A stretch of DNA of 64,000 nucleotides, from positions 372,001 to 436,000 of the forward strand of contig NZ_UETC01000001.1 in NCBI RefSeq assembly GCF_900116765.1. The letters run 5' to 3'. This DNA comes from Jannaschia seohaensis. Its GTDB lineage: Bacteria; Pseudomonadota; Alphaproteobacteria; Rhodobacterales; Rhodobacteraceae. The position numbers and the translations under genes are program-made. Below the pieces are notes generated by a model. The model made no database searches and was not told the origin of the DNA. It saw only the letters and a list, made by a program, of their open reading frames with translations. Positions within the stretch are counted from its first letter, which is position 1. The number at the start of each line of letters is the position of its first letter. Of the stretch, positions 1,761 through 61,104 are shown piece by piece.

Positions 1761-1818
1761 TTCTTCTGGCCGAAAATACTCCGGGGGGGCCCGCAGGGCC
1801 GGGGGCAGCGCCCCCCTC
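1761..1818 (+). repeat. Intergenic AAATACTCC repeat, copy 1
   Basis: Core CTTCTGGCCGAAAATACTCC followed by a G-run and a GC hairpin (GGGGGC...GCCCCC). One of ten related copies in the window. It lies between cobH and cobL, both on the plus strand, so it may attenuate or process the cob transcript. Confidence 0.85.
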
Positions 1819-1879
1819 CGCCCCCACCGCGAACACTGTCCCATCCGCGGCGCGCATCCCGAGCATCAAGGACTGACCC

Positions 1880-3085
1880 ATGTCTGACGCGCCCTGGCTC
1901 CATATCGTCGGCATCGGCGAGGACGGGCTGGCGGGCCTCAGCCCCGCCGCGCGCACCGTGGTTGAGACCGCCGAGATCATCGTCGGCGGCGACCGCCATC
2001 ACAGCCTGTCCGACAGCATCCAGGCCGAGCGCCTCGCCTGGCCGCACCCGTTCGATGCGCTGATCTCGACGCTCATGGGGCTCAAGGGCCGCCGCGTCGT
2101 GGTGCTCGCCACCGGCGATCCGCTCTGGTTCTCGGTCGGCGCGCGGATCGGACGTGCGATCCCGCCCCGCGAGATCGCCTACCACCCGCAGCTCTCGGCC
2201 TTCCAACTGGCGTCGGCCCGCATGGGCTGGTCGATGGCCGATCTGGAGACGCTGACCGTCCATGGCCGACCGGTCGAGCAGATGATCGCCTTCATCCAGC
2301 CCGACGCGCGCCTGCTGATCCTGACCACGGGGGCGGAGACCCCGGGCCAGATCGCGCGCTTCCTGACCGAGCGCGGCTTCGGCGCCTCGCCCATGACAGT
2401 GCTCGCCAATATGGGCGGGCCGGAGGAGGTGCGGTTCGACGGCACGGCCGAGACCTGGGACCACATTGTCCCGGCCTTCAACACCCTCGCCGTCGAATGC
2501 GTCGCCGCCCCCGACGCCGCGCTGCTCCCTCGGGTTCCCGGCCTCGACGATGCGCTGTTCCGCTCGGATGGGACCATGACCAAGCGCGAGGTCCGCGCTG
2601 CGACCCTGGCCAAGCTGATGCCGATGCGCGGGGCGCTTCTGTGGGATATTGGCGCGGGCTCGGGCTCGGTCGGGATCGAGTGGATGCGCGCCGCCCGCTC
2701 CGCCCGCGCCATCGGGATCGAGCCCCGCGCCGACCGCCGCGCCATGGCCGCCGAGAATGCTCTGGCGCTGGGCACGCCGCGCCTGGACCTGCGCGAGGGC
2801 GAGGCGCCCGCCGCGCTGGACGGCCTGGAGCCGCCCGACGCGGTCTTCATCGGCGGCGGCCTGTCGGAGGCCGCCTTCGACGCCGCCTGGGCGGCGTTGC
2901 GCCCGCTGGGCCGCCTGGTGGTCAACGCGGTGACGCTCGAATCGGAGGCGCTCCTGCTCGCGCTCCAGGCCAGGCATGGCGGCGACCTCGTCCGCCTCTC
3001 GGTCGATCGGGCGGAGCCGGTGGGCCGCTTCCGTGGCTGGCGCTCCGCGATGCCCGTCACGCAATGGTCCCTGATCAAGCGATGA
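1880..3085 (+). CDS. cobL: Precorrin-6Y C5,15-methyltransferase (decarboxylating) CobL
   Basis: Bifunctional enzyme: methylates C5 and C15 and decarboxylates the C12 acetate of precorrin-6B. 401 aa. The N-terminal half is a CbiE-type tetrapyrrole methylase (VGIGEDGLAGLSP at the start, ATGDPLWFSVG near residue 75); the C-terminal half is a CbiT-type SAM methyltransferase with the glycine motif DIGAGSGSVGIEW from Asp256. Its TGA overlaps the cobI ATG (ATGA), indicating translational coupling. Confidence 0.96.
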   Translation: MSDAPWLHIVGIGEDGLAGLSPAARTVVETAEIIVGGDRHHSLSDSIQAERLAWPHPFDALISTLMGLKGRRVVVLATGDPLWFSVGARIGRAIPPREIAYHPQLSAFQLASARMGWSMADLETLTVHGRPVEQMIAFIQPDARLLILTTGAETPGQIARFLTERGFGASPMTVLANMGGPEEVRFDGTAETWDHIVPAFNTLAVECVAAPDAALLPRVPGLDDALFRSDGTMTKREVRAATLAKLMPMRGALLWDIGAGSGSVGIEWMRAARSARAIGIEPRADRRAMAAENALALGTPRLDLREGEAPAALDGLEPPDAVFIGGGLSEAAFDAAWAALRPLGRLVVNAVTLESEALLLALQARHGGDLVRLSVDRAEPVGRFRGWRSAMPVTQWSLIKR

Positions 3086-3804
3086 GCGCGCGTGAGCGAG
3101 CGAAGAGCGGCCGGCTTTACGGCGTGGGCCTCGGCCCGGGCGACCCGGAACTCATCACCCGCCGCGGGGCCCGTCTGATCGAGACGGCCGAGGTGATCGC
3201 CTATCCGGCCCTGGCCGGGGGCGATAGCCTCGCGCGGTCCATCGCCGCCGAGCTGATCCCCGCGGGCGCGGAAGAGATCGTCATGGACATCCCCATGACA
3301 CCGGCGCGCGCCCCGGCCCAAGCGGCCTATGACGACGGGGCCGCCCGGATCGCGGCGGCGCTCGACACGGGCCGTGACGTGGTTTGCCTCTGTGAGGGAG
3401 ACCCCTTCTTCTACGGCTCCTTCATGTATCTCTTCGCCCGGCTCGCGCCCGCCTACCCGGTCGAGGTCGTGCCCGGCGTCACCTCGCTGACCGCCTGCGC
3501 CGCGCGCGCCGCGATGCCGCTGGCCGCCCGGAACGAGGTGATGACCGTGCTGCCCGGGCCTCTGCCGGACGATGCGCTCCGCGGGCATCTGCGCAGCGCC
3601 GACACCGTGATCTGCATGAAGGTCGGCCGTCACCTGCCGCGCTTGCGCGCCCTGCTCGCGGCCGAGGGCCTGACCGGGCGCGCCACCTATGTCGAGCGCG
3701 CCACCCTGGGGACCGAGCGCGTGCTGCCTCTGGCGGAGGCGCCGGAATCGGCGCCCTACTTTTCCATGATCCTGATCGCCAAGGGGGCCGATCCATGGCT
3801 CTGA
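3082..3804 (+). CDS. cobI: Precorrin-2 C20-methyltransferase CobI
   Basis: SAM-dependent methylation of precorrin-2 at C20. 240 aa. Tetrapyrrole methylase motifs: YGVGLGPGDPELIT near residue 12, CEGDPFFYGSFMYL near 104, and VPGVTSLTACAA near 130. The frame stays open upstream through cobL, but the ATG at 3082 overlapping the cobL stop gives the family N-terminus and is chosen. It overlaps the next gene by 10 bases. Confidence 0.95.
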   Translation: MSARERAKSGRLYGVGLGPGDPELITRRGARLIETAEVIAYPALAGGDSLARSIAAELIPAGAEEIVMDIPMTPARAPAQAAYDDGAARIAAALDTGRDVVCLCEGDPFFYGSFMYLFARLAPAYPVEVVPGVTSLTACAARAAMPLAARNEVMTVLPGPLPDDALRGHLRSADTVICMKVGRHLPRLRALLAAEGLTGRATYVERATLGTERVLPLAEAPESAPYFSMILIAKGADPWL

Positions 3805-5586: not shown

Positions 5587-5650
5587 GGGAGGGGGGCCAG
5601 CCCCCCGCGCCTGCGGCGCCCCCCCGGAGTATTTCCGGCCAGAAGAAGGA
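5587..5650 (-). repeat. Intergenic AAATACTCC repeat, copy 2
   Basis: On the minus strand it reads TTCTTCTGGCCGGAAATACT followed by a G-run and a GC hairpin. It fills the gap between the convergent cobJ fusion and the SnoaL-like gene, a position suited to a bidirectional terminator. Confidence 0.87.
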
Positions 5651-12750: not shown

Positions 12751-12862
12751 CTCTTCTTCTGGCCCCAAATACTCATGGCCCGACCCCATCCGCATTCCGA
12801 CCGCTCCGGTGTCTCGCCGAGCGTCGCGGACGGGGGGCCGGGGGGCGTCCCCCGGCCCCCTC
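12751..12862 (+). repeat. Intergenic AAATACTC repeat, copy 3 (degenerate)
   Basis: CTCTTCTTCTGGCCCCAAAT plus ACTCATGG (12751-12778) matches the repeat core; the GC hairpin (GGGGGCC...GGCCCCC) is displaced to about 12831-12862. Lies between convergent rplT and the glycosyltransferase gene. Confidence 0.7.
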
Positions 12863-18951: not shown

Positions 18952-21152
18952 CGCCGCCTCTTCTTCGGGCCCTTGCGGAGCTTGCGCTTGCGCGTGGGGG
19001 GCGCGGCCGGGCGCCGGCGTTCGCCCTCGATCTCCAAAAGCTCCACGATCAGGCCGCCGGTCACCGGCGCGGCTTCGGCCAGGCGGACGGTGACGCGCTG
19101 GCCCAGGCTGATCTCGGTGCGGGTCTCGGTCCCGGTCAGGGTCTGCTCGTCGCGATCATAGCGGAAATATTCCGCCCCGAGCGAGCGCACCGGGATCAGC
19201 GCATCCGCCCCCGTCTCGTCCAGCCGCACGAAGGCGCCGAAACTCTGCACGCCCGAGATACGGCCGGTGAACTGCGCCCCGATCTGATCGGCGAGGAAGG
19301 CGGCGAGGTAGCGGTCGTTCGTGTCGCGCTCCGCCACCATCGACCGCCGCTCCGCTTCGGAGATGAGCGTCGCGGTGGCCTCCAGATGCTCCAGATCCCA
19401 TTCCGACAGGCCATCGGCGTCGGGATTGGGGCCCCAGCCATGGGCCGTGATCAGCGCGCGATGCACGATCAGGTCGGAATAGCGCCGGATCGGCGAGGTG
19501 AAATGCGCGTAGCTTCGCAGGGCGAGGCCGAAATGGCCCAGATTGACAGGGGAATAATAGGCCTGCGCCATCGCCCGCAGGGTCGACATGGAGATCAGCT
19601 CCGCCAGATCCGTCCCCTCGGCCGCATGCAGCAGGCGGTTCAGCATCGCCGGCCGCGTCACCTGTCCCTTGGGCAGTGAAAATCCCGAGGCCTTCGCCGT
19701 CTCGCGCAGCGCGTCCAGCTTGTCCTCCGCCGGCTCTTCGTGGACGCGGTAGATCAGGGGGGTGCGCCGCTTCTCCAATTCCTCGGCGGCGGCGACATTC
19801 GCGGCGATCATGAACTCTTCGATCAGGCGATGCGCATTGAGCCGGTCGCGGAAGGCGACGGAGGTGACTTGGCCCTCCTCCGACAATTCGATCCTCCGCT
19901 CCGGCAGGTCCAGGTCCAGCGGCGCGCGGCGGGCCCGGGCGCGCTTCAGCGCGTCATAGGCGGCATAGAGCGCCCTCAGCACGTCCAGATGCGGCGCCGT
20001 GCGGTCGTTGGGCGTGCCGTCTACCGCCGCCTGCACCTCCTGGTAGTGGAACGACGCCGCGGAGTGCATCAGTCCCCGGTAAAACGTCTGCCCGGTCCGG
20101 TTCCCCTCCGCGTCGAAGGTCATCCGCACCGCGATACAGGCCCGGTCCACCCCCTCATGCAGCGAACACAGATCGCCCGAGAGCGCATCGGGCAGCATCG
20201 GGACGACCCGATCGGGGAAATAGGTCGAGTTGCCCCGCTCCCGCGCCTCCCGGTCGAGCGCGGAGCCGGGGGAGACATAGGCGGCGACGTCGGCGATGGC
20301 GACCCAGATGGCGTGGCCGTCGCCCTCGGGCTCTGCGAAGACCGCATCGTCCCGGTCGCGGGCATCCGACGGGTCGATCGTGATCAGCGGCAGGTGGCGC
20401 AGATCGGTGCGGTCGCCCAGTTCGGGCGGCGCCGCGGCCTCTGCTTCGGCGATGACCTCTTCGGGGAAGTGGTCGCGCAGGCCGTGCTGGTGGATCGCGA
20501 TAAGCGACACCGCCTTGGCCGCACCCGGATCTCCCAGGCGCGTCACCACCTTGGCCCGAGGCAGACCCATCCGCGTCCGCCCCTTGCCGATCTCCGCCTC
20601 GACAAGCTCCCCATCGCGCGCCCCGCCGGTGTCGCCCGCGCCGATGATCCATTCCCGGTCGGCCCCCTTGTCCACCGGCATCAGACGGCCGCCCTCGGCG
20701 GAGGCGCGGAACACGCCGATTGCGCGGCGCGGGCCGGTGCCGATGCGGCGGATCAGCCGGGCCTGGTGGCTGTGATCCTCACCCGTGACCTCGGTCAGCC
20801 GCATCAGCAGCCGATCCTCGGGTCCGAAGGCCGGGTCGTCCTCTTGCGGGATATAGAGAATCCTTGGCTCCGGCTCGTCGCCGCGCCAGTCGGCGGGCCG
20901 CAGGAACAGATCCCCATCGGCATCGGTGCCGGCGAGTTTCAGGATCGAGACCGGCGGCAGGCGGTTCGGGTCGTCATAGGACCTCTTGCGCTTGGTCAGA
21001 TACCCCTCGTCCTGCATCTCGCGCAGCAGGCGCTTCAGGTCGATCCGCGCCTGGCCCTTGACCCCGAAGGCCTTGGCGATGTCGCGCTTTGAGGTCTGGG
21101 CGGGGTTGTCGGCGATCCATTGCAGGATCGCCTCCTTGGTGGGGATGCTCAT
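18948..21152 (-). CDS. rnr: Ribonuclease R
   Basis: 734 aa 3'-5' exoribonuclease of the RNase II family that degrades structured RNA. N-terminal winged helix (residues about 1-65), cold-shock domains, catalytic RNB domain with DPSDARDRDDAVF near residue 255, an S1 domain (FTGRISGVQSFGAFVRL near 635), and a strongly basic tail ending KGPKKRRR. The tail is typical of RNase R. Upstream lie repeat copy 4 and rmuC. Confidence 0.96.
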   Translation of the reverse strand: MSIPTKEAILQWIADNPAQTSKRDIAKAFGVKGQARIDLKRLLREMQDEGYLTKRKRSYDDPNRLPPVSILKLAGTDADGDLFLRPADWRGDEPEPRILYIPQEDDPAFGPEDRLLMRLTEVTGEDHSHQARLIRRIGTGPRRAIGVFRASAEGGRLMPVDKGADREWIIGAGDTGGARDGELVEAEIGKGRTRMGLPRAKVVTRLGDPGAAKAVSLIAIHQHGLRDHFPEEVIAEAEAAAPPELGDRTDLRHLPLITIDPSDARDRDDAVFAEPEGDGHAIWVAIADVAAYVSPGSALDREARERGNSTYFPDRVVPMLPDALSGDLCSLHEGVDRACIAVRMTFDAEGNRTGQTFYRGLMHSAASFHYQEVQAAVDGTPNDRTAPHLDVLRALYAAYDALKRARARRAPLDLDLPERRIELSEEGQVTSVAFRDRLNAHRLIEEFMIAANVAAAEELEKRRTPLIYRVHEEPAEDKLDALRETAKASGFSLPKGQVTRPAMLNRLLHAAEGTDLAELISMSTLRAMAQAYYSPVNLGHFGLALRSYAHFTSPIRRYSDLIVHRALITAHGWGPNPDADGLSEWDLEHLEATATLISEAERRSMVAERDTNDRYLAAFLADQIGAQFTGRISGVQSFGAFVRLDETGADALIPVRSLGAEYFRYDRDEQTLTGTETRTEISLGQRVTVRLAEAAPVTGGLIVELLEIEGERRRPAAPPTRKRKLRKGPKKRRR

Positions 21153-21238
21153 GGGGTCGCAGGTAGCACGGCGGTGGGGCGGCGTCGAATGCCCACAGGC
21201 TCAGTCATTCTTCATTAAGGTTAACGCGTCCCTTCCTG

Positions 21239-21283
21239 CCTCATCTTGCCGGAAATACCTTGGGGTCCGGGGCAAAGCCCCGG
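21239..21283 (+). repeat. Intergenic AAATACCT repeat, copy 4
   Basis: TCATCTTGCCGGAAATACCT followed by the hairpin CCGGGGC-AAA-GCCCCGG. Lies between rmuC and rnr (both minus strand). Confidence 0.88.
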
Positions 21284-21303
21284 CTTTTGGCGATCCGACG
21301 GAC

Positions 21304-22332
21304 TCATCCCCGCCGGATGACCGGCGCGAGCCGCGGCTTGGCCGCCGCCTCCTCCCCGAAGTCGAACGCGTCCAGCCGCTCGGCCCGCCTGCCCGCGCGT
21401 TCGGCGGCGGTGGCGATCCCTTCGACATCCCGCCGCGCCTGGTCGAAATGGCTCTCCAGCTTGGCCGCGCGCTCCACGATCAACTCCACGTCCCGGCCTA
21501 AAGCGGCGAGCGCACGGCGGATGTCCCCTGCTTGCTCGCGCATTCGGTGGTCCTTGAGCACGGCGCGCAGCGTGTTGAGCGTCGCCATCATCGTGGTCGG
21601 CGAGACGATCCAGACGCGGGCGACGAAGCCCTCGCGGACGATCTCCGGGTGGTTGGCATGCAGCTCCGCATAGATCGCTTCCGAGGGGAGAAACAGGCAG
21701 GCGCCATCCGCCGTCTCTCCGGGCAGGACGTATTTGTCGGCGATGGCGCGGATATGGGTGCGCAGCGCGGCGCGGAAGGCGGTCTTCGTCGTCTGAGACG
21801 GCTCCGCGAGCAGCGCCTCGTAGCTCTCCAGCGGGAACTTGGCGTCGATGACCAGCGGCCCCGGCGGGTCGGGCATGTGGATGAGGCAATCGGCGCGGCG
21901 CCCGTTCGTCAGCGTCGCCTGCCAGGTGAAGGCGTCGGGCGGCAGCGCCTTGGCCACCAGGTCGTGAAGCTGGATCTCGCCGAAAGCGCCACGCGTCTGC
22001 TTATTGGACAGAATGTCTTGGAGGCCGAGAACGTTCGACGACAGGTCCTCGATCCGGGACTGGGCGGCGTCGATGGCGGCGAGCCGCTGTTGCAGCGCGC
22101 CCAAAGAGGCCGCCGTGCGGGCCGCGCCGTCGGTCAGCGCCGCTGCCGTCCCGGCCTCGGCCCGCGCCTGCGCATCGGCCAGCCCGGCCAGCGTCCCGGT
22201 CAGCTGCGCCTGGGCGCGGGACAGGTCCCGCAGCCGGGCGGACATGGCGAGCACGACGACCAGTAGCAGCAGCGCGAGCGCCCCCGCGCCCAGCGCGCCC
22301 AGCGTGGCCGGGTCCGACAGGTCCAGGATCAT
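21304..22332 (-). CDS. rmuC: DNA recombination protein RmuC
   Basis: 342 aa. Predicted nuclease-like protein implicated in limiting recombination at inverted repeats. N-terminal membrane anchor (residues about 12-31), a long coiled coil, then [16 protein letters not shown] and the PD-D/ExK-like [15 protein letters not shown]. The ATG at 22332 overlaps the mutL stop (ATGA) and is preferred to an earlier in-frame start at 22401. Coupling to mutL fits a shared DNA-maintenance role. Confidence 0.92.
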
Positions 22333-24131
22333 GTCCGGCCGAACAGGCGCTCGATGTCCTTGAGGTCCAGCGAGACATAGGTGGGGCGGCCGTGGTTGCA
22401 TTGGCCCGACATCGGCGTCGCCTCCATCTCCCGCAGGAGCGCGTTCATCTCGGGCGCCGACATGCGGCGGCCCGCGCGGATCGAGCCGTGGCAGGACATG
22501 CGGCTGAGGATCGCGTCCAGGCGGCGGCGGAGGGTGAGGGGCGTGGCGTCCTCGTCCTCCTCCAATTCCTCGATGATGTCGCGGATCAGGGCCTCCGCCG
22601 AGACGGGCCCGAGGAGCGCGGGCGTCTCGCGCACGGCAACGCAGCCGGGGCCGAACGGGTCGAGGCCGAGGCCCAGGGCGCTCAGGTCCAGCGCCAGCAG
22701 CCGCTCCGCCCAGGGGCCGACCTCCACCACTTCGGGGATCAGCAGCGCCTGCGCGGCGATGCCGCCCGCTTCGGCCTGGGCCTTGAGGCGCTCGTAGACG
22801 AGACGCTCATGGGCGGCGTGCTGGTCGACCAGGACGAAGCCGGTCTCGGTCTGGGACAGGATGTAGGTTTCGTGCAATTGCGCGCGGGCGGCGCCGAGAT
22901 AGCCGGGGGCTGCGTCGGGCGTGGGCTCGGGCGCGGGCTCGACCCGGGCGGAGGCGTCGGCGAAGCCCGGCATCTGCATCGTATAGGCCGTGTCCCGGGC
23001 GCGGGGCGAGGGGCGGTCCATCTGATAGACCGGCGCGGCGGGACGCGGCGGCTCGGCCCGGGCGGCGCCGAGGGTGGCGGTGGCGACGGTCGTGGCGCTG
23101 CGGTGGCCCGCTTCGGCCAGGGCATGCTTCAGGCCCGAAACGATGAGCCCCCGCACCAGCCCGGCATCGCGGAAGCGGACCTCCGTCTTGGCCGGATGGA
23201 CGTTGCAATCGACCAAGGTCGGCGGGCAGGTGATGAAGAGAGCGGCGACCGCGTGGCGGTCCTTGGCCAGCACGTCCGCATAGGCTCCGCGCAGGGCGCC
23301 GGTCAGCATCCGGTCGCGGACAGGGCGGCCGTTGACGAAGAGATATTGGTGCACCGCGTTGCCGCGCGAATAGGTCGGCAGGCCCGCATGGCCGGTCAGG
23401 CGGTGGCCCTCCCGCTCGGCATCGAGCGTCATGCAGTTCTCGGCGAAGGCGCGGCCTAGAATGGTGGCGAGCCGGTCGGCGAGGCTGGCGGCGGGGTCGG
23501 CGCGGAACAGCACCTTGTCCTCGCCATCCGAGACGTCGCGCAGATCGAAGGCGACCCCCGGCTCGGCCATGGCGAGGCGGCGCACGGCGTCGGTGACGGC
23601 CATGCTCTCGGAGCGTTCGGATTTCAGGAACTTCAGCCGCGCCGGAGTGGCGTGGAACAGGTCGCGCAGTTCGACGACCGTCCCGGCGCGCAGCGCGGCG
23701 GGGCGGGGCGCGTCGATCCGGCCGCCCGAGACATGCAGGCTCATCGCCCCGTCCGACCCAGTGGCGCGGGTGGTGATCGTCAGGCGGCCGACGGCGCCGA
23801 GCGAGGGCAGCGCCTCGCCCCGGAAGCCGAAGGAATGGATCTGGAGCAGATCCGTCCCGTCGATCTTGGAGGTGGCATGGCGCGAGAGCGCCAGCGGCAG
23901 GTCCTCGGCGGCGATGCCATGGCCGTCATCGGTGACGCGAATCAGCGTGCGTCCGCCATCGGCGATCTCGATCCGGATGCGGCTGGCGCGGGCGTCGAGC
24001 GCGTTCTCCACCAGTTCCTTGACGGCCGAGGCGGGGCGCTCGACCACCTCGCCCGCGGCGATGCGATTGATCGCGGCCTCGTCCAGCTGACGAATGCGGG
24101 GAGGGGATATGTTGCGGTCCTGGGCGCCCAT
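22329..24131 (-). CDS. mutL: DNA mismatch repair protein MutL
   Basis: 600 aa. N-terminal GHKL ATPase: [14 protein letters not shown] and [24 protein letters not shown] follows. A Pro/Ala-rich linker spans about residues 345-415. The C-terminal domain keeps the endonuclease metal motif [12 protein letters not shown] near residue 434, as in MutH-less bacteria, and ends with the CNHGRPT block. Nicks the new strand during mismatch repair. Confidence 0.97.
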
Positions 24132-24222
24132 GGCGCTACAGCTAGCGCGACCGGCCCGGCAGGGGAACCCGGATCATGCGCTGTTCGGGCCGGGCGCGGT
24201 CCTCATTTCGCCCGACAGTCCT

Positions 24223-24244
24223 GGCCGCGGGGTGCCCCGCGGCC
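24223..24244 (-). terminator. GC hairpin after the M16 peptidase pair
   Basis: Perfect 10-bp arms GGCCGCGGGG / CCCCGCGGCC with a 2-base centre, 9 bases past the M16 stop on the minus strand. No U-run, so termination is plausible but not certain. Confidence 0.5.
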
Positions 24245-24252
24245 GACCGGGT

Positions 24253-25593
24253 TCAGCCGTCGCTCGCGGGGGCGGGCAGGGGGCCGGTCTCCAATCCGTC
24301 CGGCTGGCCCACCACGACGAAATGCAGGTTCTCCGGTTGGAGGATGCGCCGCGCGACGCGGGCGATGTCCTCGGGCGTGACCGCCATGATGTTGTCGTTG
24401 CGCGTCGCGATATACTCGATGGGCAGATGCTGTGCCTGCATCGAAACCAGGATCCCCGCGATATTGGCGTTGCCGTCGAATCGCAGCGGATAGGCGCCGG
24501 TCAGATAGGTCTTGGCGGCGTCCAGCTTGTCAGTGGCGATACCGTTCGCGGCCACGTCCGCCCAGATGTCGCGGACGATCTGCACCGCCTCGGCGGTCTT
24601 GTCGTTGGACGACGAAAACTGGCCCATATATTGCGCCGCCAGATCCCGCGGCACCAGGAAGCTGCCGATGCCATAGGTCAGCCCGCGCTCCTCGCGGACC
24701 TCGGTCATCAGCTTGGAGGCGAAGCCAGAGCCGCCGAGGATGTGGTTCATGACATAGGCGGGGAAGAAATCCTCGTCGTCGCGCATGATGCCCTCGTGGC
24801 TCCAGAGCACCAGGGATTGCGGCGTAGGGAAATCGACGACCGTGATGCCGCCAGCGAGCGCATACTCGGCCTCGGGCACCTCGGGCGCGCTGCTTTCGGG
24901 CAGGGCGCCGAGCAGCTCGTCGAGCAGCGGCCCGAGTTCCTCGGCGGTAATGTCGCCGGTGACGCCGACATGTACACGGTCGCGGGTCAGTGCCGCCCCA
25001 TGCGCCGCGACGAGGTCGTCGCGGGTCAGCGCCGACACCGTCTCCCGTGTGCCCTCCAGCTGGGTGCCGTAGGGATGGTCGGGAAAGGCCAGGCGAGCCA
25101 TCGTGGCCGACGCGATCTCCTGCGGGTCGGTCTCGTCCTGGGCGATGCCGGCCAGCACCTGGTCGCGGACGCGGTCGATATCGTCCTGCTCGAATTGAGG
25201 CGAGACCAGCGCATCGCGGAGCAGCGCGAGCGCGTCGGCCCGGTTCTCGGTCAGTACCTGGGCCGAGACCGACACGCTGTCGTTGAACGCCTCGAAGCCG
25301 AAGCTGGCGGCCAGGCCTTCGGTCGCCTCGGCGAAGGCGCGGGCGTCGCGGTCGCCGGCACCCTCTTCGAGCAGGGCCATCATCAGATTGGTGGCGCCGC
25401 GCTTGCCCGGCGCGTCCAGGTTGGCGCCGCCTTCGAAGTGCAGCTCGATGGCGACGAAGGGGATCGACGGCTCTTCCACCAGCCAGGCGGTGATGCCGCC
25501 CTCCGACGTGACCTCCTGGATCTCGACGGCGGCGAGCGCGGGCAGGGGCAGAATGGCCGCGGCGGCGACGGTCAGGGCGCGCAGGAAGGTCAT
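24253..25593 (-). CDS. M16-family peptidase homologue lacking the zinc motif
   Basis: 446 aa with a signal peptide (cleavage after PALA, about residue 22). It has the M16 double-domain fold, but the position of the HxxEH zinc motif reads NLMMALLEEG, so it is probably the non-catalytic partner. It overlaps the stop of the active homologue upstream by 4 bases (ATGA), matching the two-subunit arrangement of periplasmic M16B peptidases. Confidence 0.9.
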   Translation of the reverse strand: MTFLRALTVAAAAILPLPALAAVEIQEVTSEGGITAWLVEEPSIPFVAIELHFEGGANLDAPGKRGATNLMMALLEEGAGDRDARAFAEATEGLAASFGFEAFNDSVSVSAQVLTENRADALALLRDALVSPQFEQDDIDRVRDQVLAGIAQDETDPQEIASATMARLAFPDHPYGTQLEGTRETVSALTRDDLVAAHGAALTRDRVHVGVTGDITAEELGPLLDELLGALPESSAPEVPEAEYALAGGITVVDFPTPQSLVLWSHEGIMRDDEDFFPAYVMNHILGGSGFASKLMTEVREERGLTYGIGSFLVPRDLAAQYMGQFSSSNDKTAEAVQIVRDIWADVAANGIATDKLDAAKTYLTGAYPLRFDGNANIAGILVSMQAQHLPIEYIATRNDNIMAVTPEDIARVARRILQPENLHFVVVGQPDGLETGPLPAPASDG

Positions 25594-26942
25594 TGGCTCA
25601 CCTCCTCGGTCGGGGCTTCGGGACGGGTGAGATAGCCCGTGACGGACCTGTTCATGTCGAAAACGCGTTCGGCGGCGGCCAGGATGTCCTCCTCGGTCAC
25701 GGCCTCCAGGATGCGCGGCCATTCCTGCACATCCTCGACCGTCAGGCCCGAGGTGATGGCGACGCCGTAATTCCGCGCGCGGCCCTGCAGGCTGTCGCGG
25801 CCATAGATCTCGGAGGCGCGGATCTGCGCCTTGATCCGCTCAAGCTGGGCGTCCTCGATCCCCTCCTCCAGGAGTTGCGCGATCATCCGGTCCATGTCGG
25901 CCTCTGCCTCTTCCAGCGAGCGGCCGGGCACGGGCATGACGACCAGACCGAAGGTCGTGTCGTCCAGCGAGGTGCCGCTGTAGAAGGCCGAGGTATAGAG
26001 CGCGGTGCCCTCTTCCTGCTCCAGAGTGCGGCCCATGATCGAGGTCTGAGAGGACCCGCCGAGCACCTGCGCCAGGATCGTCAGCGCGGCGGCTTCCTCC
26101 TGTGCGCCGGCATCGCGCTCGGGGGCGAGATAGGTGCGGATCACGTAGGGGTTCGAGACCCGGTCATCTTCCATCGTGGCGCGGCGTGGCACCAGTTGCG
26201 GCGGCTCGGAAGGGCGGACCCGCGGGGCGAGGTCGGGATTGGCGGCGATGGGGCCGTAATGCTCCAGCGCGAGGCGCTCGACCTCGGCGGGGTCGACATC
26301 GCCCGCGACGATCAGGGTCGCGTTGTTGGGGGCGTAATGCTCCCTGTAGAAGTCGATGGCATCCTGGAGCGTCAACTCCCGGATCTCCTGCGGCCAGCCG
26401 ATGATCGGAATGGCGTAAGGGTGGTTGAGATACTGGATCGCGCGCCGCTGCTCGGCGAAGATCGCGCCGGGATTGCTGTCGGTGCGCTGTGCCCGCTCCT
26501 CTTGGACGACATCCCGCTCCGTCAGGAAGTCGTCGCTGTCGAGCCGGAGGTCGCGCATCCGGTCGGCCTCCATCTCCATCATCAGGCCCAGACGGTCCGA
26601 GGCCACCCGCTGGAAATAGCCGGTATAGTCGTAGCTGGTGAAGGCGTTGTCGGAGCCCCCCTGCGCCTCGACGATGCGGGAGAACTCGCCCGGACCCAGA
26701 TCGTCGGTGCCCTTGAACATCAGGTGTTCCAGGTAGTGGGCGATGCCCGACTTGCCCGGCGGCTCGTCGGCGGCGCCCACATCGTACCAGACCATGTGGA
26801 CGACGACGGGCGCGCGGTTGTCCTCGATGACGATGGCGTCCATGCCGTTGGGCAGGGTGAAGGTGGTGACCGTGTCGTCGCCGGTCTGCGCCGCGGCGGG
26901 CAGCGCGAGGGCGAGGGCGGCGGCGAATATGGGCAGTCGCAA
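25590..26942 (-). CDS. M16-family zinc peptidase (catalytic subunit)
   Basis: 450 aa from a TTG start at 26942, chosen because it gives a clean signal peptide (cleavage after PAAAQ, residue 19); a GTG at 27035 is an alternative. The inverted zinc motif HYLEH is at residues 69-73 (GIAHYLEHLMF). Probably a periplasmic peptidase acting on peptides as a heterodimer with the next gene. Substrate unknown. Confidence 0.92.
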   Translation of the reverse strand: MRLPIFAAALALALPAAAQTGDDTVTTFTLPNGMDAIVIEDNRAPVVVHMVWYDVGAADEPPGKSGIAHYLEHLMFKGTDDLGPGEFSRIVEAQGGSDNAFTSYDYTGYFQRVASDRLGLMMEMEADRMRDLRLDSDDFLTERDVVQEERAQRTDSNPGAIFAEQRRAIQYLNHPYAIPIIGWPQEIRELTLQDAIDFYREHYAPNNATLIVAGDVDPAEVERLALEHYGPIAANPDLAPRVRPSEPPQLVPRRATMEDDRVSNPYVIRTYLAPERDAGAQEEAAALTILAQVLGGSSQTSIMGRTLEQEEGTALYTSAFYSGTSLDDTTFGLVVMPVPGRSLEEAEADMDRMIAQLLEEGIEDAQLERIKAQIRASEIYGRDSLQGRARNYGVAITSGLTVEDVQEWPRILEAVTEEDILAAAERVFDMNRSVTGYLTRPEAPTEEVSQ

Positions 26943-28189: not shown

Positions 28190-28233
28190 CTCATCTTGCC
28201 GAAAATACCTCGGGGTCCGGGGCAGAGCCCCGG
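28190..28233 (+). repeat. Intergenic AAATACCT repeat, copy 5
   Basis: TCATCTTGCCGAAAATACCT followed by the hairpin CCGGGGC-AGA-GCCCCGG. Lies between purH and lspA (both minus strand). Confidence 0.88.
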
Positions 28234-33352: not shown

Positions 33353-33401
33353 CCATCACGGGTTCAAAAATACTCACATCGCACCGCGCCCCCCAGGCGC
33401 G
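33353..33401 (+). repeat. Intergenic AAATACTCAC repeat, variant class, copy 6
   Basis: ACGGGTTCAAAAATACTCAC followed by ATCGC and a CCCCAGGCGC tail. It shares AAATACTC with the main repeat but has a different left side. A second copy of this class is at 35970. Lies between the convergent DUF1674 and secreted-protein genes. Confidence 0.8.
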
Positions 33402-33796: not shown

Positions 33797-33858
33797 CCTT
33801 CTTCTGGCCGGAAATACTCCGGGGGGGCGCCGCAGGCGCGGGGGGCTGGCCCCCCTCC
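33797..33858 (+). repeat. Intergenic AAATACTCC repeat, copy 7
   Basis: CCTTCTTCTGGCCGGAAATA followed by CTCC, a G-run and the hairpin GGGGGGC-TGG-CCCCCC. Nearly identical to copy 2 in reverse. It ends six bases before the dapB stop codon. Confidence 0.9.
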
Positions 33859-33863
33859 GCCCT

Positions 33864-35941: not shown

Positions 35942-35969
35942 TGCCGCCCCCAAAGCGCTCTGACCCCTC

Positions 35970-36016
35970 AGCACGGGTTCACAAATACTCACGTCGCGCC
36001 GCCCGCCCCAGGCGCA
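35970..36016 (+). repeat. Intergenic AAATACTCAC repeat, variant class, copy 8
   Basis: GCACGGGTTCACAAATACTC followed by ACGTCGC and a CCCCAGGCGC tail; sister of the copy at 33353. Lies between the NAGPA-family gene and truB (both plus strand). Confidence 0.8.
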
Positions 36017-36037
36017 CCGTCTCAGAAAGGAGTACCC

Positions 36038-36940: not shown

Positions 36941-36950
36941 GGGCGGCGTT

Positions 36951-36998
36951 TGAAGCACTCGGAGCCGATCGCTCCGACCGATCGCCGCGAGTGTTTCA
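36951..36998 (+). terminator. Large imperfect hairpin after truB
   Basis: Outer arms TGAAGCACTCG (36951-36961) and CGAGTGTTTCA (36988-36998) pair with one G-U; inner arms CGATCG / CGATCG (36966-36971, 36979-36984) pair around a 7-base loop. No U-run follows, so it may be a terminator or a 3'-end stabiliser. Confidence 0.5.
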
Positions 36999-37107
36999 GG
37001 GGCTCACTAGATTGGGCCATCATCTCTCCGCTCCGGTGCCCCCTGGTGAGGGGGCTGCCGGGGGCTCCGGCTATACGTCTCTCCAGCACCGCAGCCGGAG
37101 ATGCCGC

Positions 37108-37516
37108 ATGACCGACAGCGTCGCCTCCACCACCCGGGCGCTTTTCGCCGCCGGTGCCCTCGCGACGTGGACGTCAAGGCGGTCTTCGCCGTCACGCCAA
37201 AGGGGATCGGGGAGATCGTTCTCACCCTGAGCGGGCTGATCGCCTTTCCGCTGGTTTATGTCCTGCTCGCCCGCGCGCTGCCGCCTCTGGCGCTGGACCC
37301 TGGTTCTTCGGCCTGCATTTTGACGCCCATCTTATCGCGGGCAACGCGCCGTTCCTGGGCGTCTCGGGTCTCACCGGGGATCCTCTGGGGACCCTCTTCG
37401 CGCGGGTCGCCGCGACAGGGATCGAGGCGCGTCCGCCGCGCTCTGGCCCGACATGCCGAAATGACCTGTTTCCGTGGACGCGGGGCCGGGCCTTTGGCAT
37501 GTCGGCGCCATGCTGA
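37108..37516 (+). pseudogene. Decayed gene with two apparent frameshifts (membrane protein remnant)
   Basis: Protein-like segments lie in three consecutive frames: MTDSVASTTRALFAAGALAT from 37108; then VKAVFAVTPKGIGEIVLTLS and LIAFPLVYVLLARALPPLAL from about 37170; then WFFGLHFDAHLIAGNAPFLG from about 37302 to the stop at 37516. The joins need one-base losses near 37165 and 37300. The middle part is a hydrophobic helix. Family not recognised. Overlaps the next gene's start by 7 bases. Sequencing errors are an alternative explanation. Confidence 0.55.
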
Positions 37517-38028
37517 TCCGCACCCATCAAAAGGGCGATGCGTCCTCGACCGCCACCTATAGCGACGACGAGGTCTATCGCTACGACCTCACCCGCATCT
37601 GGGACCCCGAGGGCACGCGCGTGACCTTTGCCATGCTCAACCCCTCGACCGCCACCGAGCTCGCCAACGACCCCACCGTCGAGCGCTGCGAGCGCCGCGC
37701 CCGCGCCCTGGGGCACGGAGCCTTTCGCGTGGTGAACATCTTCGCTTACCGCGCCACCGATCCGCGGGACATGAGGGCCCATCCCGAGCCGGTCGGCGGC
37801 CCCGCCAACGACGCCGCCATCCGGGACGCCGCGCTCTGGGCGGATGAGACGGTCTGTGCCTGGGGCACCCATGGGACGCATCTGGAGCGGGGGCCGGCGG
37901 TAGAGCGGCTGCTGCGAGCGACCGGGCGGCCCTTGTTTCACCTCGGATTGTCCAAGGCGGGGCATCCGAAGCACCCGCTCTATATCGGGTATGCCGTGCG
38001 CCCCGTGCCCTGGGTCGTGCCCGGCTGA
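37510..38028 (+). CDS. DUF1643 domain protein
   Basis: 172 aa. FAMLNPSTATELANDPTVER followed by CERRA, FRVVNIFAYRATDP, and WGTHGTHLERG are the DUF1643 pattern. Function unknown; the family is scattered in bacteria and phages, often in accessory DNA. The ATG at 37510 is chosen over an in-frame ATG at 37474. It lies between truB and rpsO, next to a decayed gene, in what looks like an insertion. Confidence 0.85.
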   Translation: MLIRTHQKGDASSTATYSDDEVYRYDLTRIWDPEGTRVTFAMLNPSTATELANDPTVERCERRARALGHGAFRVVNIFAYRATDPRDMRAHPEPVGGPANDAAIRDAALWADETVCAWGTHGTHLERGPAVERLLRATGRPLFHLGLSKAGHPKHPLYIGYAVRPVPWVVPG

Positions 38029-38411
38029 GATCGGGGAGGGGGGCTCTGCCCCCCGTCGCCAGGGGCGACTCCCCCCGAGGTATTTCTGGCAAGATGAGGT
38101 GGGGCTCGCGGCGAGGCGGACGAGGACGGCGCCATTGCCTCGCAACTTCGTCCGGCCCGGCGCGCAGGCCATTCCGACGGCGTCCAGCGCTGGGTCGAAC
38201 GCCGCGAACCAGAGCGGAGGGAGCGGGAGGCGTCGCCGAGGATGGGGCCGGGCATGGGTGCCTTGTCGCAGGCGGCGTTGAGGACGGGTGAAGATCGCGC
38301 GAACGGGGCTTTCCAATCGGGGATTCGATGTGTATGCGACGCGCTCACTCCATGGGCCCGACCTGGACGACATCCCGGGCGGCGCCATCACCTCAAACCC
38401 AGGAGACCCCG
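38029..38411. other. Gap between DUF1643 gene and rpsO
   Basis: 383 bases. Holds repeat copy 9 (38033-38099) and the rpsO leader. I see no credible gene, RNA or clear promoter in the rest. Confidence 0.6.
38033..38099 (-). repeat. Intergenic AAATACCT repeat, copy 9
   Basis: On the minus strand CCTCATCTTGCCAGAAATAC, then CTCGGGGGGAGTC and the hairpin GGGGGGC-AGA-GCCCCCC. Directly after the DUF1643 stop. Confidence 0.9.
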
Positions 38412-38681
38412 ATGTCGATTACCGTCGAAGAGAAGAACCGCCTGATCAAGGAATTCGCAACCAAGGAGGGCGACACTGGCTCTCCGGAAGTTCAGGTCGC
38501 GATTCTGACCTCGCGCATCAGCACGCTGACCGAGCACTTCAAGACCCACAAGAAGGACAACCACTCCCGCCGTGGCCTTCTGAAGCTGGTCGCGCAGCGT
38601 CGTAAGCTACTCGACTATACGCGCGCCAAGGACGAAGCCCGCTATCAGGACCTGATCAAGCGGCTGGGCATCCGCCGCTAA
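38412..38681 (+). CDS. rpsO: 30S ribosomal protein S15
   Basis: 89 aa, complete uS15: [20 protein letters not shown] at the start, [20 protein letters not shown] and [20 protein letters not shown]. Binds 16S rRNA at the helix 20-22 junction. The ATG at 38412 has CAGGAG upstream; the earlier in-frame ATG at 38328 is rejected on family length. Followed by a terminator, so it is not directly joined to pnp. Confidence 0.98.
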
Positions 38682-38707
38682 TCACCGTTCCAAGACGAGT
38701 TGCGGCG

Positions 38708-38734
38708 CGCCCGTTCCGATGGAGCGGGCGTTTT
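38708..38734 (+). terminator. Intrinsic terminator of rpsO
   Basis: Stem CGCCCGTTCC / GGAGCGGGCG (one G-U pair) with a GAT loop, then TTTT. Confidence 0.85.
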
Positions 38735-38783
38735 CGTTGGTGCCGGGGGTGTCAGGTCCCGACGACTGGGGCAGCGCGCCCGA

Positions 38784-39299
38784 TCAGTCGAAATCATATT
38801 GCATGAAGATGAAATACGGCTGCGCTTCGACCGGGTCCGAGCATTCGGGATAGGCGTCGATGTAGCGGAATCCCAGCTTCTCGTAGATCCGGATCATGTC
38901 CATGTTGCCCCGGATCGCGTTGACCAGAAGGGTCTTCCACCCGATCTCCCGCGCGGCCGCCATCCGCATGTCGACGATCGCCCGCCCAAGCCCGTGGCCC
39001 GCCGCCTTCGGCTTGACGTAGAGGCGTTTCAACTCGCCCGCGTCGGGCCGCGCCTGTTGCAGCGTTCCACAGCCGACGAGGTCGCCGTTGCCGTCATGGA
39101 CAAGGATCAGCCGGCCGGTGGGTGGCAGAAACTTGTGCAGGTTGGGCCAGAAGGAGGATTTCAGATCTTCCGCCGTGTAGATCGTGGGGCCGCCGGCCGC
39201 TTCGAACTTGCGCAGGATGACGCCGTAATATTCCAGCAGCAGGGCATCGAGCGCCGCCTTGTCGGGAACCGTGTCGAAGGACGAAACGTCGTAGGTCAT
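38784..39299 (-). CDS. GNAT-family N-acetyltransferase
   Basis: 171 aa. Acetyl-CoA binding motif A: LKRLYVKPKAAGHGLGRAIV near residues 90-110; KTLLVNAIRGNMDMIRIYEK and LGFRYIDAY complete the fold. Acceptor unknown. Starts two bases after the stop of the VPLPA-CTERM gene upstream on the same strand, so the two form an operon inserted between rpsO and pnp. Confidence 0.9.
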   Translation of the reverse strand: MTYDVSSFDTVPDKAALDALLLEYYGVILRKFEAAGGPTIYTAEDLKSSFWPNLHKFLPPTGRLILVHDGNGDLVGCGTLQQARPDAGELKRLYVKPKAAGHGLGRAIVDMRMAAAREIGWKTLLVNAIRGNMDMIRIYEKLGFRYIDAYPECSDPVEAQPYFIFMQYDFD

Positions 39300-39301
39300 G
39301 G

Positions 39302-40729
39302 TCAAGCCCGGTCCTCCTCGATCCCGCGGCAACCGGATCGTCCCCTGCTCCCCATTGCCATGCCCGCAAGGAGAAGGGCGAAGGCCCAGCCCATGGCCGG
39401 CAGCGGTACCGCCGTTCTCACCTCGGTCAGGCGGAACGCGCGCCCCGCCCCCTCCAGGAGCACGCCCGCGCCGCCGTCGGCGAAGTTGAAGAAGCGCGGA
39501 TCGACCCGGCCGTTGCGCGCGCCCAGTTCGAACAACGAAGTCGGGGCGCCGGATTCGTCCTGGAGATTGACCCGGAACACGTCCACCTGGCCCACGACCC
39601 AAAACGGGTCGGCCAGGGTCGCATAGACCCGGCCGGACACGAGGTCGCCGAACAGCGCGGCGATCCCGTCGAAGGAGCTTGCCGAAAAGACCGGTCCCGA
39701 GACCGCTGCGAATGTCAGATCCTCGCGCCCGAACTGGGCGTAGGGCTGAAGGAAGCCCGCCTCGCCCGGCGGCGCCTCTCCGACGGCGTCGGGCGCGCCT
39801 GTCACCCCAGGGGCGCCGGGGGCGATGTAGAATGTCCCCTCCCGCGCGAGGCCGTCGGCATTGCGGCCCCAGCCGAAATTCTCGATCACGGTCGTGTCGA
39901 GCAGGTCGGCGAGCGGGACGACGTTGATCTCCTCGGCGGTGGCCGCGCCGATATCGGACATCGCCACGGCGGTCTTGCTGGCGTCGGTCCAGGTCAGGCG
40001 CTGGGTATTGCGCAGGCCCTTGGCGACGACCTGGGCCGCGCCCGTCGTGGCGTCGATGCGGAGGATCTTCGACAGGTGCGAGCTGTCATCCTGCGGGGCG
40101 GCGCGTCCGTCCGTGCCGAAGAGCAGGCCGTCGCCGATCGCGAAGAGCACGTCGCCCCCGTCCAGGCCGAGCAGGCCGCCTCCGAGATGGCCGCTATCGC
40201 CGATGCCGAAACTCGCCAGTGCGACCGGGTCGGTGAGGGTTCCGTCGGAGGCGCGCCGATACCGGTAGACCACCTGGTAGAGCGGGGTCGAGGAATACTC
40301 GCCGACCGTGGGCGGCCGCCGGGCCGGGGGCGCGTCTGTCGGCAAGCTCTCCGAGAGGGTCGCGACGAAGACGGCGTCCCCCGCGCCGTCGGCGATATCG
40401 AGAATGGCGGCGCGGCTTGACGGGCTGAACCCGGCAGGGGCCGCGTTGGCGAGGTCGAGCACCGTCTGAAACCCGCTGGCGGTTTCCCGAAGGATGCGGC
40501 CGGCTTGGTCCACATAGTGCAACGCGCCGTCGATCGCCTTGGGCGCGGCGAAATTGTTGGGGCCGGGGGAGAAAGGGGTGGCGACCTCCACCGCGCGCAC
40601 GATCACGCCGCTGGGACGGATCGGATCGGGGGCGAAGGTCGCCGCCCGCGCGTCGCCGGCGGACGACAGGAGGGACAAGATGAGGCCGACCAGCGCGACC
40701 AGACCCGTGCGTGCAACGTGCTGCGACAT
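39302..40729 (-). CDS. Secreted beta-propeller protein with VPLPA-CTERM sorting signal
   Basis: 475 aa. Signal peptide (residues 1-29), then propeller blades. GLRNTQRLTWTDASKTAVAM followed by SDIGAATAEEINVV and the ENFGWGRNADG block resemble sorbosone/glucose dehydrogenase-like propellers. From residue 441: VPLPA, a hydrophobic helix (WAFALLLAGMAMG) and a basic tail, the tripartite VPLPA-CTERM signal that Rhodobacterales exosortase-type transpeptidases process. Predicted surface protein; substrate or enzymatic role unknown. No exosortase gene lies in the window. Confidence 0.85.
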   Translation of the reverse strand: MSQHVARTGLVALVGLILSLLSSAGDARAATFAPDPIRPSGVIVRAVEVATPFSPGPNNFAAPKAIDGALHYVDQAGRILRETASGFQTVLDLANAAPAGFSPSSRAAILDIADGAGDAVFVATLSESLPTDAPPARRPPTVGEYSSTPLYQVVYRYRRASDGTLTDPVALASFGIGDSGHLGGGLLGLDGGDVLFAIGDGLLFGTDGRAAPQDDSSHLSKILRIDATTGAAQVVAKGLRNTQRLTWTDASKTAVAMSDIGAATAEEINVVPLADLLDTTVIENFGWGRNADGLAREGTFYIAPGAPGVTGAPDAVGEAPPGEAGFLQPYAQFGREDLTFAAVSGPVFSASSFDGIAALFGDLVSGRVYATLADPFWVVGQVDVFRVNLQDESGAPTSLFELGARNGRVDPRFFNFADGGAGVLLEGAGRAFRLTEVRTAVPLPAMGWAFALLLAGMAMGSRGRSGCRGIEEDRA

Positions 40730-60082: not shown

Positions 60083-61026
60083 TCCCTTCCGTCACCCGGG
60101 CCGATATCGAGGCCGCGGCCGACCGAATCCGCGGCCATGCCCTGCGCACGCCGCTGCTCAACGCGCCGTTGCTCGACGCCTTCGCCGGACGCCGGATCTG
60201 GGTCAAGGCGGAGTGCTTGCAGAAAACCGGCAGCTTCAAGTTCCGCGGCGCCTATAACGCCGTCAGCCAGGCCCCGGGCGATGTGGTCGCCTTCTCCTCG
60301 GGCAATCACGCGCAGGGCGTGGCCTTGGCCGCGCGGATGCTCGGAAAGCAGGCAGTCATCATCATGCCGTCGGACGCCCCGGCCGTGAAGATCGCCAATA
60401 CCCGCTTCTATGGCGCCGAAGTGGTGCTCTACGACCGCGCCACCGAGGATCGCGACGCCTTGGGCGAGGCATTGCAGGCGGAACGGGGCCTGACCCTGGT
60501 GCGCCCCTTCGACGAGCCCATGGTCATCGCGGGGCAAGGCACGTGCGGGCTCGAGATCGCCGAGGATCTGCCCGACTCCGTCACTCAGGTGCTGGTCTGC
60601 TGCGGCGGCGGGGGCCTCACCTCCGGCGTGGCGCTGGCGCTGGAAGGCCGCGCCACCGTCCATCCGGTGGAACCCGAGGGCTTCGACGACGTCGCCCGCT
60701 CCCTCGCCTCCGGCCGGATCGAGCGCAATGAACGCCTGACCGGCTCGCTCTGCGATGCGATCATCACGCCCTCGCCGGGCCGGATCACCTTTCCGATCAT
60801 GCACCGCCTCTGCGGCCCCGGCCTGACCGTGACCGAGACCCAGGCCCTCCAGGCCATGGCTCTCGCCTGGCAGCATCTGCGCATCGTATTGGAACCCGGC
60901 GGCGCGGTGGCCCTCGCCGCCGCCCTGTTCCACGCCGAGGGCGATGTCTGCGCCGTCGCCTCGGGCGGAAATGTCGACCGTGACGTGTTCATCCGGGCGC
61001 TGACGGAAACCAAAGAAATCGAATAA
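60064..61026 (+). CDS. Threonine/serine dehydratase-like PLP enzyme
   Basis: 320 aa, catalytic domain only (no ACT domain), so not the allosteric biosynthetic IlvA. PLP lysine Lys59 in GSFKFRGAYNAV; SSGNHAQGVALAARML near residue 79; and the phosphate loop CCGGGGLTSG near 180. Could deaminate threonine or serine or hydrolyse threo-3-hydroxyaspartate. The ATG at 60064 overlaps the hydrolase gene. Confidence 0.9.
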   Translation: MDDASLIPSVTRADIEAAADRIRGHALRTPLLNAPLLDAFAGRRIWVKAECLQKTGSFKFRGAYNAVSQAPGDVVAFSSGNHAQGVALAARMLGKQAVIIMPSDAPAVKIANTRFYGAEVVLYDRATEDRDALGEALQAERGLTLVRPFDEPMVIAGQGTCGLEIAEDLPDSVTQVLVCCGGGGLTSGVALALEGRATVHPVEPEGFDDVARSLASGRIERNERLTGSLCDAIITPSPGRITFPIMHRLCGPGLTVTETQALQAMALAWQHLRIVLEPGGAVALAAALFHAEGDVCAVASGGNVDRDVFIRALTETKEIE

Positions 61027-61039
61027 AATTCTCCGCGCT

Positions 61040-61104
61040 CTCATCTTGCCGGAAATACCTCGGGGGGAGTCCGGCTTGCCGGACGGGGGGCAGAGCCCCC
61101 CTCC
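61040..61104 (+). repeat. Intergenic AAATACCT repeat, copy 10
   Basis: CTCATCTTGCCGGAAATACC followed by TCGGGGGGAGTCC, a CCGGCTTGCCGG stem and the hairpin GGGGGGC-AGA-GCCCCCC. Fills the gap between convergent dehydratase and MFS genes; the last base touches the MFS stop codon. Confidence 0.92.

What the first reader, a model, noticed from the sequence alone, without database searches (positions are those of the whole stretch)
1761..61104. Ten-copy dispersed intergenic repeat with an AAATACYC core
Copies at 1761, 5587 (reverse), 12751 (degenerate), 21239, 28190, 33353, 33797, 35970, 38033 (reverse) and 61040. Most read CATCTTGCCGGAAATACCTC or CTTCTGGCCGGAAATACTCC, then a G-run and a GC hairpin whose arms vary in sequence but keep pairing. 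Every copy lies outside genes and on the 3' side of at least one gene; four fill convergent gaps. That density (about one per 6.4 kb), the constant position and the covarying hairpin suggest a selected RNA or terminator/processing element, or a mobilised REP-like unit. I cannot say whether it has been formally named.
Basis: seen in the sequence. Interest (0 to 1): 0.72.

Follow-up and report, generated by a model that had tools for sequence, protein, structure and literature searches.

The report
Dialect-tagged hairpin repeat of Rhodobacteraceae
Short hairpin-forming DNA tags, spelled differently in different lineages but nearly identical within one genome, are scattered just behind genes across one family of bacteria; what reads or spreads them is unknown.

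Summary
The repeat is real. Of ten claimed copies, seven are complete: a ~12-nt tag, two bases, AAATAYYYC, then G(n)-X-G(n)-loop-C(n). One is tag plus core only; two carry another tag and no G-run.

The genome holds 96 copies of AAATACYYCGGGG, one per 50 kb; the window is locally enriched (6 by this pattern). Outside the family the pattern is near chance. Copies lie 3' of genes (78 of 80) and avoid divergent gaps, without orientation bias (26 sense, 23 antisense). No RAYT family (PF01797) is present.

Tags are near-invariant within this genome (T1: 4 deviations in 550 positions), differ in several other genera, and assort freely with hairpin types (p=0.66). Some sites are old: at an AAA-CoxE junction 18 of 30 loci read carry the element, all sense, with covarying arms. 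Others are new: purH-lspA lie within 3 nt in 19 of 19 relatives but are split by 183 nt with a copy here. Both G-runs and the C-run are equal in 58 of 60 single-hairpin copies.

Best reading: a REP-like palindrome without RAYT, recognised as DNA by an unknown factor, its hairpin serving as an mRNA 3'/intercistronic stem. I found no published name.

The parts
1760..1819 (+). complete copy, tag T1 (CTTCTTCTGGCC), core AAATACTCC, insert-type hairpin; tandem genes, sense
5588..5648 (-). complete copy, tag T1, insert-type hairpin; convergent gap
12753..12774 (+). tag T1 plus core AAATACTC without the G-run hairpin; convergent gap
21240..21283 (+). complete copy, tag T2 (CTCATCTTGCC), core AAATACCTT, single hairpin with 4-nt runs; antisense to flanking genes
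28190..28233 (+). complete copy, tag T2; lies in the 183 nt between purH and lspA, which are -1 to +3 nt apart in 19 of 19 same-genus relatives
33354..33375 (+). tag T3 (CACGGGTTC) plus core; no G-run, a different hairpin follows
33798..33858 (+). complete copy, tag T1, identical from tag to C-run with the copy at 5588-5648; antisense to flanking genes
35969..35990 (+). tag T3 plus core without G-run hairpin; sense, core 41 nt after a stop
38035..38099 (-). complete copy, tag T2, insert-type hairpin; antisense to the preceding gene
61039..61104 (+). complete copy, tag T2, insert-type hairpin; convergent gap; no AAATAC/GTATTT in the 330 nt behind the orthologous gene in 15 of 15 same-genus relatives that have it

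Best explanation
It is a modular extragenic palindromic element of one family (taken to be Rhodobacteraceae), REP-like in placement and dispersal but not REP/RAYT. Shown: (1) a unit of tag + AAATAYYYC core + G(n)-X-G(n)-loop-C(n) hairpin, nearly restricted to 3' flanks; (2) tag homogeneity within this genome and different tags in several other genera; (3) tag and hairpin type assort independently here; (4) old sites with covarying arms, and at least one derived gain. Inferred: the tag is read as DNA by an unknown factor that copies or homogenises the element, because tags are about equally intact in sense-only and antisense-only copies, so a single-stranded RNA reading of the tag is unlikely. 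Also inferred: once in a 3' flank, the hairpin, which can form in the transcript of either orientation, acts as an mRNA 3'-end or intercistronic decay barrier; in the antisense orientation it precedes UAUUU and may also terminate weakly.
For: 78 of 80 own copies lie 3' of a gene: 29 convergent, 26 tandem sense, 23 tandem antisense, 2 divergent (3 of the 80 overlap a called gene end). In the 580 kb set 19 convergent/33 tandem/0 divergent junctions hold a copy against 7.8/31.1/13.1 expected, p=4e-7. T1 tag deviations 4 in 550 positions; any tag mismatch in 1 of 26 sense and 2 of 22 antisense copies. Other tags in G024, G029, G028, G030, G018. Tag against hairpin type p=0.66. Orthologous AAA-CoxE junction: 18 of 30 loci read carry it, all sense; 29 of 30 flanking pairs Watson-Crick against 13.7 shuffled, reached by 0 of 10000 shuffles. 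Gain at purH-lspA. Dispersed copies 98% alike over 52-56 nt in G024.
Against: No trans-acting factor was identified. No RNA 3'-end or decay data were available. Of 660 stem pairs 604 are Watson-Crick, 8 G.U, 15 A.C, 33 other: too little wobble of either kind to point to RNA-level selection. Folding z-scores of the four complete copies folded, both strands, lie between -2.3 and +0.9. Tags are not strictly species-specific: T1 is shared by several named genera (found by that tag) and T2 by G000 and G029. In G024 the tag at the CoxE site is not that genome's majority tag. Several tags coexist in one genome. Two sites examined in the genus are not conserved.
Confidence: 0.43

Rival explanations
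1. A family-specific transcription terminator: hairpin followed by UAUUU in the antisense orientation, with an unexplained bidirectional action.
For: 3' position, avoidance of divergent gaps and tight packing between convergent stop codons; one module (CTCCCGCCGGAG next to the core) puts the hairpin directly before UAUUU on the other strand.
Against: No orientation bias in tandem gaps (26 vs 23); no U-tract after the hairpin in the sense orientation; copies between co-directional genes conserved across genera and between bchX and bchY; a terminator does not need an invariant 12-nt tag; the generic scan of 20500-39500 flagged the hairpin of one of the four complete copies there, on the + strand (33838-33860), among 8 sites against 5.4 in shuffles.
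Confidence: 0.2
2. A double-stranded protein-binding site (roadblock, insulator or nucleoid site) whose tag coevolves with its binding protein.
For: Bipartite near-invariant tag+core, orientation-neutral, different tags in different genera at shared gene junctions.
Against: Several tags per genome would need several proteins or a flexible one; it does not explain the hairpin or the matched run lengths.
Confidence: 0.2
3. A purely selfish repeat mobilised by an unknown enzyme that is not a Y1 transposase; hairpin kept by template switching, no host function.
For: Two unlinked window copies identical from tag to C-run, near-identical dispersed copies in G024, gain at purH-lspA, copy number 0 to 96 within one genus, orientation-neutral.
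Against: Presence at the CoxE junction in 18 genera in one orientation; tags and hairpins do not travel as a linked unit.
Confidence: 0.13
4. A DNA-uptake-type sequence with species dialects kept by biased uptake.
For: Dialects nearly invariant within a genome, as described for Neisseriaceae (PMC3630211, abstract).
Against: About a hundred copies rather than thousands; 68 of 69 tag+core hits in 580 kb are outside called genes; the hairpin is unexplained.
Confidence: 0.04

Closest known systems
REP/REPIN elements with RAYT (TnpA-REP)
   Same: Short extragenic palindromes, about 100 per genome, next to a constant motif, dispersed, 3' of genes, patchy among relatives. The opposite strand of the AGTC-type insert hairpin carries CGTC in 18 of 21 such copies, and PMC3733652 (section on CGTC families read) reports CGTC REPs in all alphaproteobacterial orders.
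   Different: No Y1 transposase (PF01797) in this genome nor in 18 of 21 other family genomes tested. No CGTC or GTAG in any of the 56 copies with the other hairpin types bar one GTAG; lineage-specific 12-nt tag; matched double G-run.
Intrinsic terminators
   Same: GC hairpin near stop codons; on one strand it precedes UAUUU.
   Different: Orientation-neutral, inside co-directional gene pairs, near-invariant tag, no U-tract in the sense orientation.
DNA uptake sequence dialects of Neisseriaceae (PMC3630211, abstract and outline read)
   Same: Near-invariant within a genome, different between relatives.
   Different: Far fewer copies, extragenic, attached hairpin; uptake not tested.
Intercistronic stability hairpins such as that of the Rhodobacter puf operon (recalled)
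   Same: Hairpin between co-directional genes in the same bacterial group.
   Different: A dispersed tagged family rather than a single locus; no decay data here.

Membership tests
REP/RAYT | RAYT/Y1 transposase in the genome | tested here: not met
   PF01797: 0 matches in G000, 18 of 21 other family genomes have none, among them G008, G013 and G002 with 65, 31 and 27 cores; G006, G011 and G018 have a weak or partial match. G024, G025 and G035 were not in that search
REP/RAYT | terminal GTAG or CGTC tetranucleotide of the palindrome | tested here: not met
   tag and core hold one of them in 1 of 80 copies; in the whole unit CGTC (either strand) occurs in 18 of 21 AGTC-type copies and 1 of 3 unparsed, in 0 of 56 others; GTAG in 1 of 80. 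The A/T pairs that the paper gives for CGTC stems are not those of the GTCGGCC-type stem
REP/RAYT | many dispersed extragenic copies | tested here: met
   96 cores; 78 of 80 copies 3' of genes
REP/RAYT | inverted pairs (BIME/REPIN, head-to-head dimers) | tested here: inconclusive
   a few close inverted pairs, otherwise single copies in the lists seen
Intrinsic terminator | hairpin followed at once by a U-tract in the direction of the gene it ends | tested here: not met
   only possible for antisense copies; 26 tandem copies are sense
Intrinsic terminator | RNA 3' ends at the element | not testable with these tools
   no transcript data held for these genomes
DNA uptake sequence | dialects nearly invariant within a genome | tested here: met
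DNA uptake sequence | thousands of copies (PMC3630211 abstract), also inside genes (recalled) | tested here: not met
   96 cores; 1 of 69 tag+core hits in 580 kb inside a called gene
Known Rfam family | match above gathering score | tested here: not met
   no match in the whole window; one copy (60900-61200) searched to E=5 gave one hit of 13.8 bits against a gathering score of 60
IS91-type HUH unit | Y2 transposase in carriers | tested here: not met
   PF04986 in 2 of 16 chosen genomes, G018 (44 cores) and G017 (0 cores), not in G000; the tool's 14 control genomes gave no positive either

The most novel reading that the evidence does not exclude
A genome-wide dialect system: an undiscovered DNA-recognising factor reads a lineage-specific tag next to a hairpin whose two G-runs and C-run are held at equal length (a fold-back triple-strand or alternative-pairing structure), and tags at inherited sites are rewritten when the factor's specificity changes. 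It would be neither REP/RAYT nor DUS/ComP.
Probability: 0.25. Interest if true: 0.85.

Novelty: new variant of a known kind. Interest (0 to 1): 0.6.

Why it matters
Such elements occupy 3' flanks in many genomes of one large bacterial family and could affect operon expression, annotation of terminators and genome evolution. Different tags at shared gene junctions, with hairpins assorting freely, make it possible to search for the factor that reads them. The equal-length double G-run rule is a sharp constraint that no named repeat I know of explains.

Tried and rejected
RAYT mobilisation: rejected as a general cause by absence of PF01797 here and in 18 of 21 other family genomes tested. IS91-type mobilisation: PF04986 in only 2 of 16 genomes. 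Rfam membership: none. Chance: rejected. Wobble asymmetry as a test of the functional RNA strand: too few wobbles to decide. Alignment A1 misplaced one sequence by a column because of a shorter loop, so the pairs were counted in a script instead. The first extraction of gene ends did not turn minus-strand loci and was redone. Literature: nine searches listed no named Rhodobacterales repeat with this consensus; the library lacks most subscription papers, and (sequence strings) was filled with unrelated papers. Papers: PMC7866481, passages: no motif found at PNPase-dependent 3' ends in R. sphaeroides. PMC2267715, passages: the word Rhodobacter does not occur. PMC3733652, passages and section 6: none of Rhodobacter, Paracoccus, Roseobacter, Ruegeria occurs, but CGTC REPs are said to occur in all alphaproteobacterial orders. 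PMC3630211, outline and abstract. All other papers: search listing only.
Full report
Observation. The core is over-represented in the window and all ten coordinates hold it. Seven are complete elements; 12767 has tag and core only; 33368 and 35983 belong to another tag class without the G-run. The window lies in contig C16 of a 4.84 Mb, 37-contig genome. The pattern GNNRRAAATACYYCGGGG has 75 matches there and 0 for the reversed control; AAATACYYCGGGG has 96. By the latter pattern the window has 6 where about 1.3 are expected.

Anatomy. From 80 de-duplicated own copies the unit reads tag, two bases, AAATAC, TCC or CTC, then G(n), an insert, G(n), a short loop and C(n). Tag T1 is YTTCTTCTGGCC with TCC; T2 is YCTCATCTTGCC with CTC. 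T3 (CATCACGGGTTC) and T4 (CTTCTTCCCTG with AAATATCCC, 7 copies in 580 kb) are rarer. T1 shows 4 deviations in 550 tag positions; the fetch pattern had fixed one G of the tag and, for most copies, the two purines. The insert is three bases (TNN), or a variable hairpin, or AGCGCGA. In single-hairpin copies pooled over nine genomes the two G-runs and the C-run are equal in 58 of 60, and G1 equals G2 in 58 against 25.7 when shuffled. Of the 77 own copies that parse (of 80), 70 obey the rule once a G belonging to the insert stem is allowed for, and 7 do not. I have no proven cause. Possible ones are alternative pairing of the C-run with either G-run, a fold-back G.G.C triple strand, or copy-correction within a palindrome.

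Placement. By a codon-usage gene caller of my own (rough), 29 of 80 own copies are convergent, 26 tandem sense, 23 tandem antisense and 2 divergent; 3 of the 80 overlap a called gene, probably through a wrong gene end. In 38 stretches (580 kb) junctions holding a copy are 19 convergent, 33 tandem and 0 divergent against 7.8, 31.1 and 13.1 expected from gaps of 80 nt or more. In G024, 27 of 29 copies lie 3' of a gene, with 8 sense and 9 antisense in tandem gaps (genes called with the own-genome codon model). Orientation is thus neutral while the 3' position is nearly strict.

Conservation against decay. Within 580 kb T1 matches fall at 0 (26), 1 (10), 2 (2), 3 (1) and 4 (2) mismatches, with none up to 7 in Markov controls; the 5-mismatch class is mostly T2. 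These stretches, the window excepted, were chosen because they hold an intact copy, so the lack of decayed copies is only suggestive. Some copies keep tag and core where the hairpin is wholly different. Tag mismatches are about as rare in sense-only (1 of 26) as in antisense-only (2 of 22) copies, and tag class and hairpin class are unlinked (chi-square p=0.66); 5 of 56 distinct right-hand modules occur with both T1 and T2. This argues for DNA-level reading of the tag and for modules that assort.

Distribution. Exact cores range from 0 to 96 within the genus and up to 103 in the family. In 289 genomes sampled over the class, genomes outside the family hold at most 3, the reversed control at most 2. 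Named carriers of T1 tag plus core include Limimaricola, Psychromarinibacter, Shimia and Planktomarina; blastn finds copies on plasmids of Ruegeria, Phaeobacter, Paracoccus, Salipiger and others, 7 and 5 records for two queries. That the family is Rhodobacteraceae in GTDB's sense is recalled; NCBI places the named plasmid carriers in Roseobacteraceae and Paracoccaceae. Other genera use other tags before the same core: TTTCATCTCTT in G024, CTTCTTCGTTG and others in G029, CTTCATTTGGC in G028, TCTTTGCTT in G030. Tags are lineage-specific rather than strictly species-specific: T2 also occurs in G029, and T1 in several named genera (those loci were fetched by T1 and are no evidence on dialects).

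Site history. Among 194 candidate elements of 16 genomes, five pairs at three gene junctions share both flanking orthologues and orientation while the tag differs: AAA ATPase-CoxE-like VWA (G000, G028, G029), ABC permease-ATPase (G000, G029) and malate synthase G-HbpS-like (G024 and the JAUIAS MAG); families are. For the first junction I read the 30 best loci of 62 genomes with a match, of 80 sampled: 18 carry the element, all sense (17 with hairpin, one tag and core only), 5 have the CoxE-like gene without it, and 7 have another neighbour (the neighbour was judged by eye from its start). Seven of the 18 have AAATAT and one AGATAC instead of AAATAC. In 15 of the 17 hairpins (two of irregular type left out) the two pairs flanking the stem are Watson-Crick in 29 of 30 cases, against 13.7 shuffled and never reached in 10000 shuffles. 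A family-wide pattern matches 26 of these 30 genomes, with 0 in every reversed control; the four without a match (G345, G363, G034, G347) also lack the element at this junction, while G331 (10) and G020 (2) have matches elsewhere but lack it here. Behind malate synthase G, 5 of 30 loci read show GTATTT within 190 nt of the stop: G338, G348 and G030 close to the gene, G327 and G021 further off; the copies in G024 and JAUIAS are. Against vertical inheritance everywhere: no AAATAC/GTATTT lies in the 330 nt behind the orthologue of the gene at 61104-62342 in 15 of 15 other genomes that have it, and purH-lspA lie -1 to +3 nt apart in 19 of 19 relatives but 183 nt apart here with a copy between. In G024 the tag at the CoxE junction is not that genome's majority tag. 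In G024 some dispersed copies are 98% alike over 52-56 nt, and two window copies are identical from tag to C-run, so copies do spread.

Mechanism. RAYT is excluded as a general cause (G024, G025 and G035 not tested) and an IS91-type transposase is absent from 14 of 16 genomes chosen. CGTC, a REP hallmark, appears on one strand of the AGTC-type insert hairpin (18 of 21 copies) but in none of the 56 copies with other hairpins; whether that insert descends from a CGTC REP is open. A terminator role alone is disfavoured by neutral orientation and by positions between co-directional genes, including bchX-bchY in Roseinatronobacter and trmB-aroA in R. pomeroyi. I favour a REP-like element with DNA-level spreading or homogenisation by an unknown factor, plus an RNA hairpin role in 3' flanks. 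The first part is inferred from tag behaviour; the second from placement and covariation, not from transcripts. Of 660 stem pairs 604 are Watson-Crick, 8 G.U, 15 A.C (many beyond a stem end) and 33 other (insert hairpins counted only if they had four Watson-Crick pairs); this neither shows nor excludes RNA-level selection.

Novelty. Nine text searches listed no published name (see Tried and rejected), but subscription papers are mostly missing. I rate it a new variant of the extragenic palindromic repeats, with features (dialect tags, matched double G-run, no RAYT) that I did not find described.

Noticed in passing
L152:475, L197, L205, L210, L086: Some insert hairpins in other genomes hold sequences of the GGTTCAAGCC type or close to it, resembling the seven-base loop of a tRNA T-arm.
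   Followed up: no
L247 (G334), downstream of malate synthase G: About three tandem repeats of roughly 50 nt, with a GGAGCGAGGGGG-type hairpin.
   Followed up: no
L061 near 8737-, L094 5144-/5284+, G000:C16:500213/500430: Occasional close pairs of copies in inverted orientation.
   Followed up: no
window 1-64000: Copies are about five times denser here than over the genome (6 against 1.3 by the exact pattern), and contigs differ: 31 of 75 hits in C16 (987 kb), 2 in C21 (475 kb), 1 in C22 (335 kb).
   Followed up: partly
window 28112-28294: purH and lspA, within 3 nt of each other in 19 of 19 same-genus relatives, are split by 183 nt here.
   Followed up: yes
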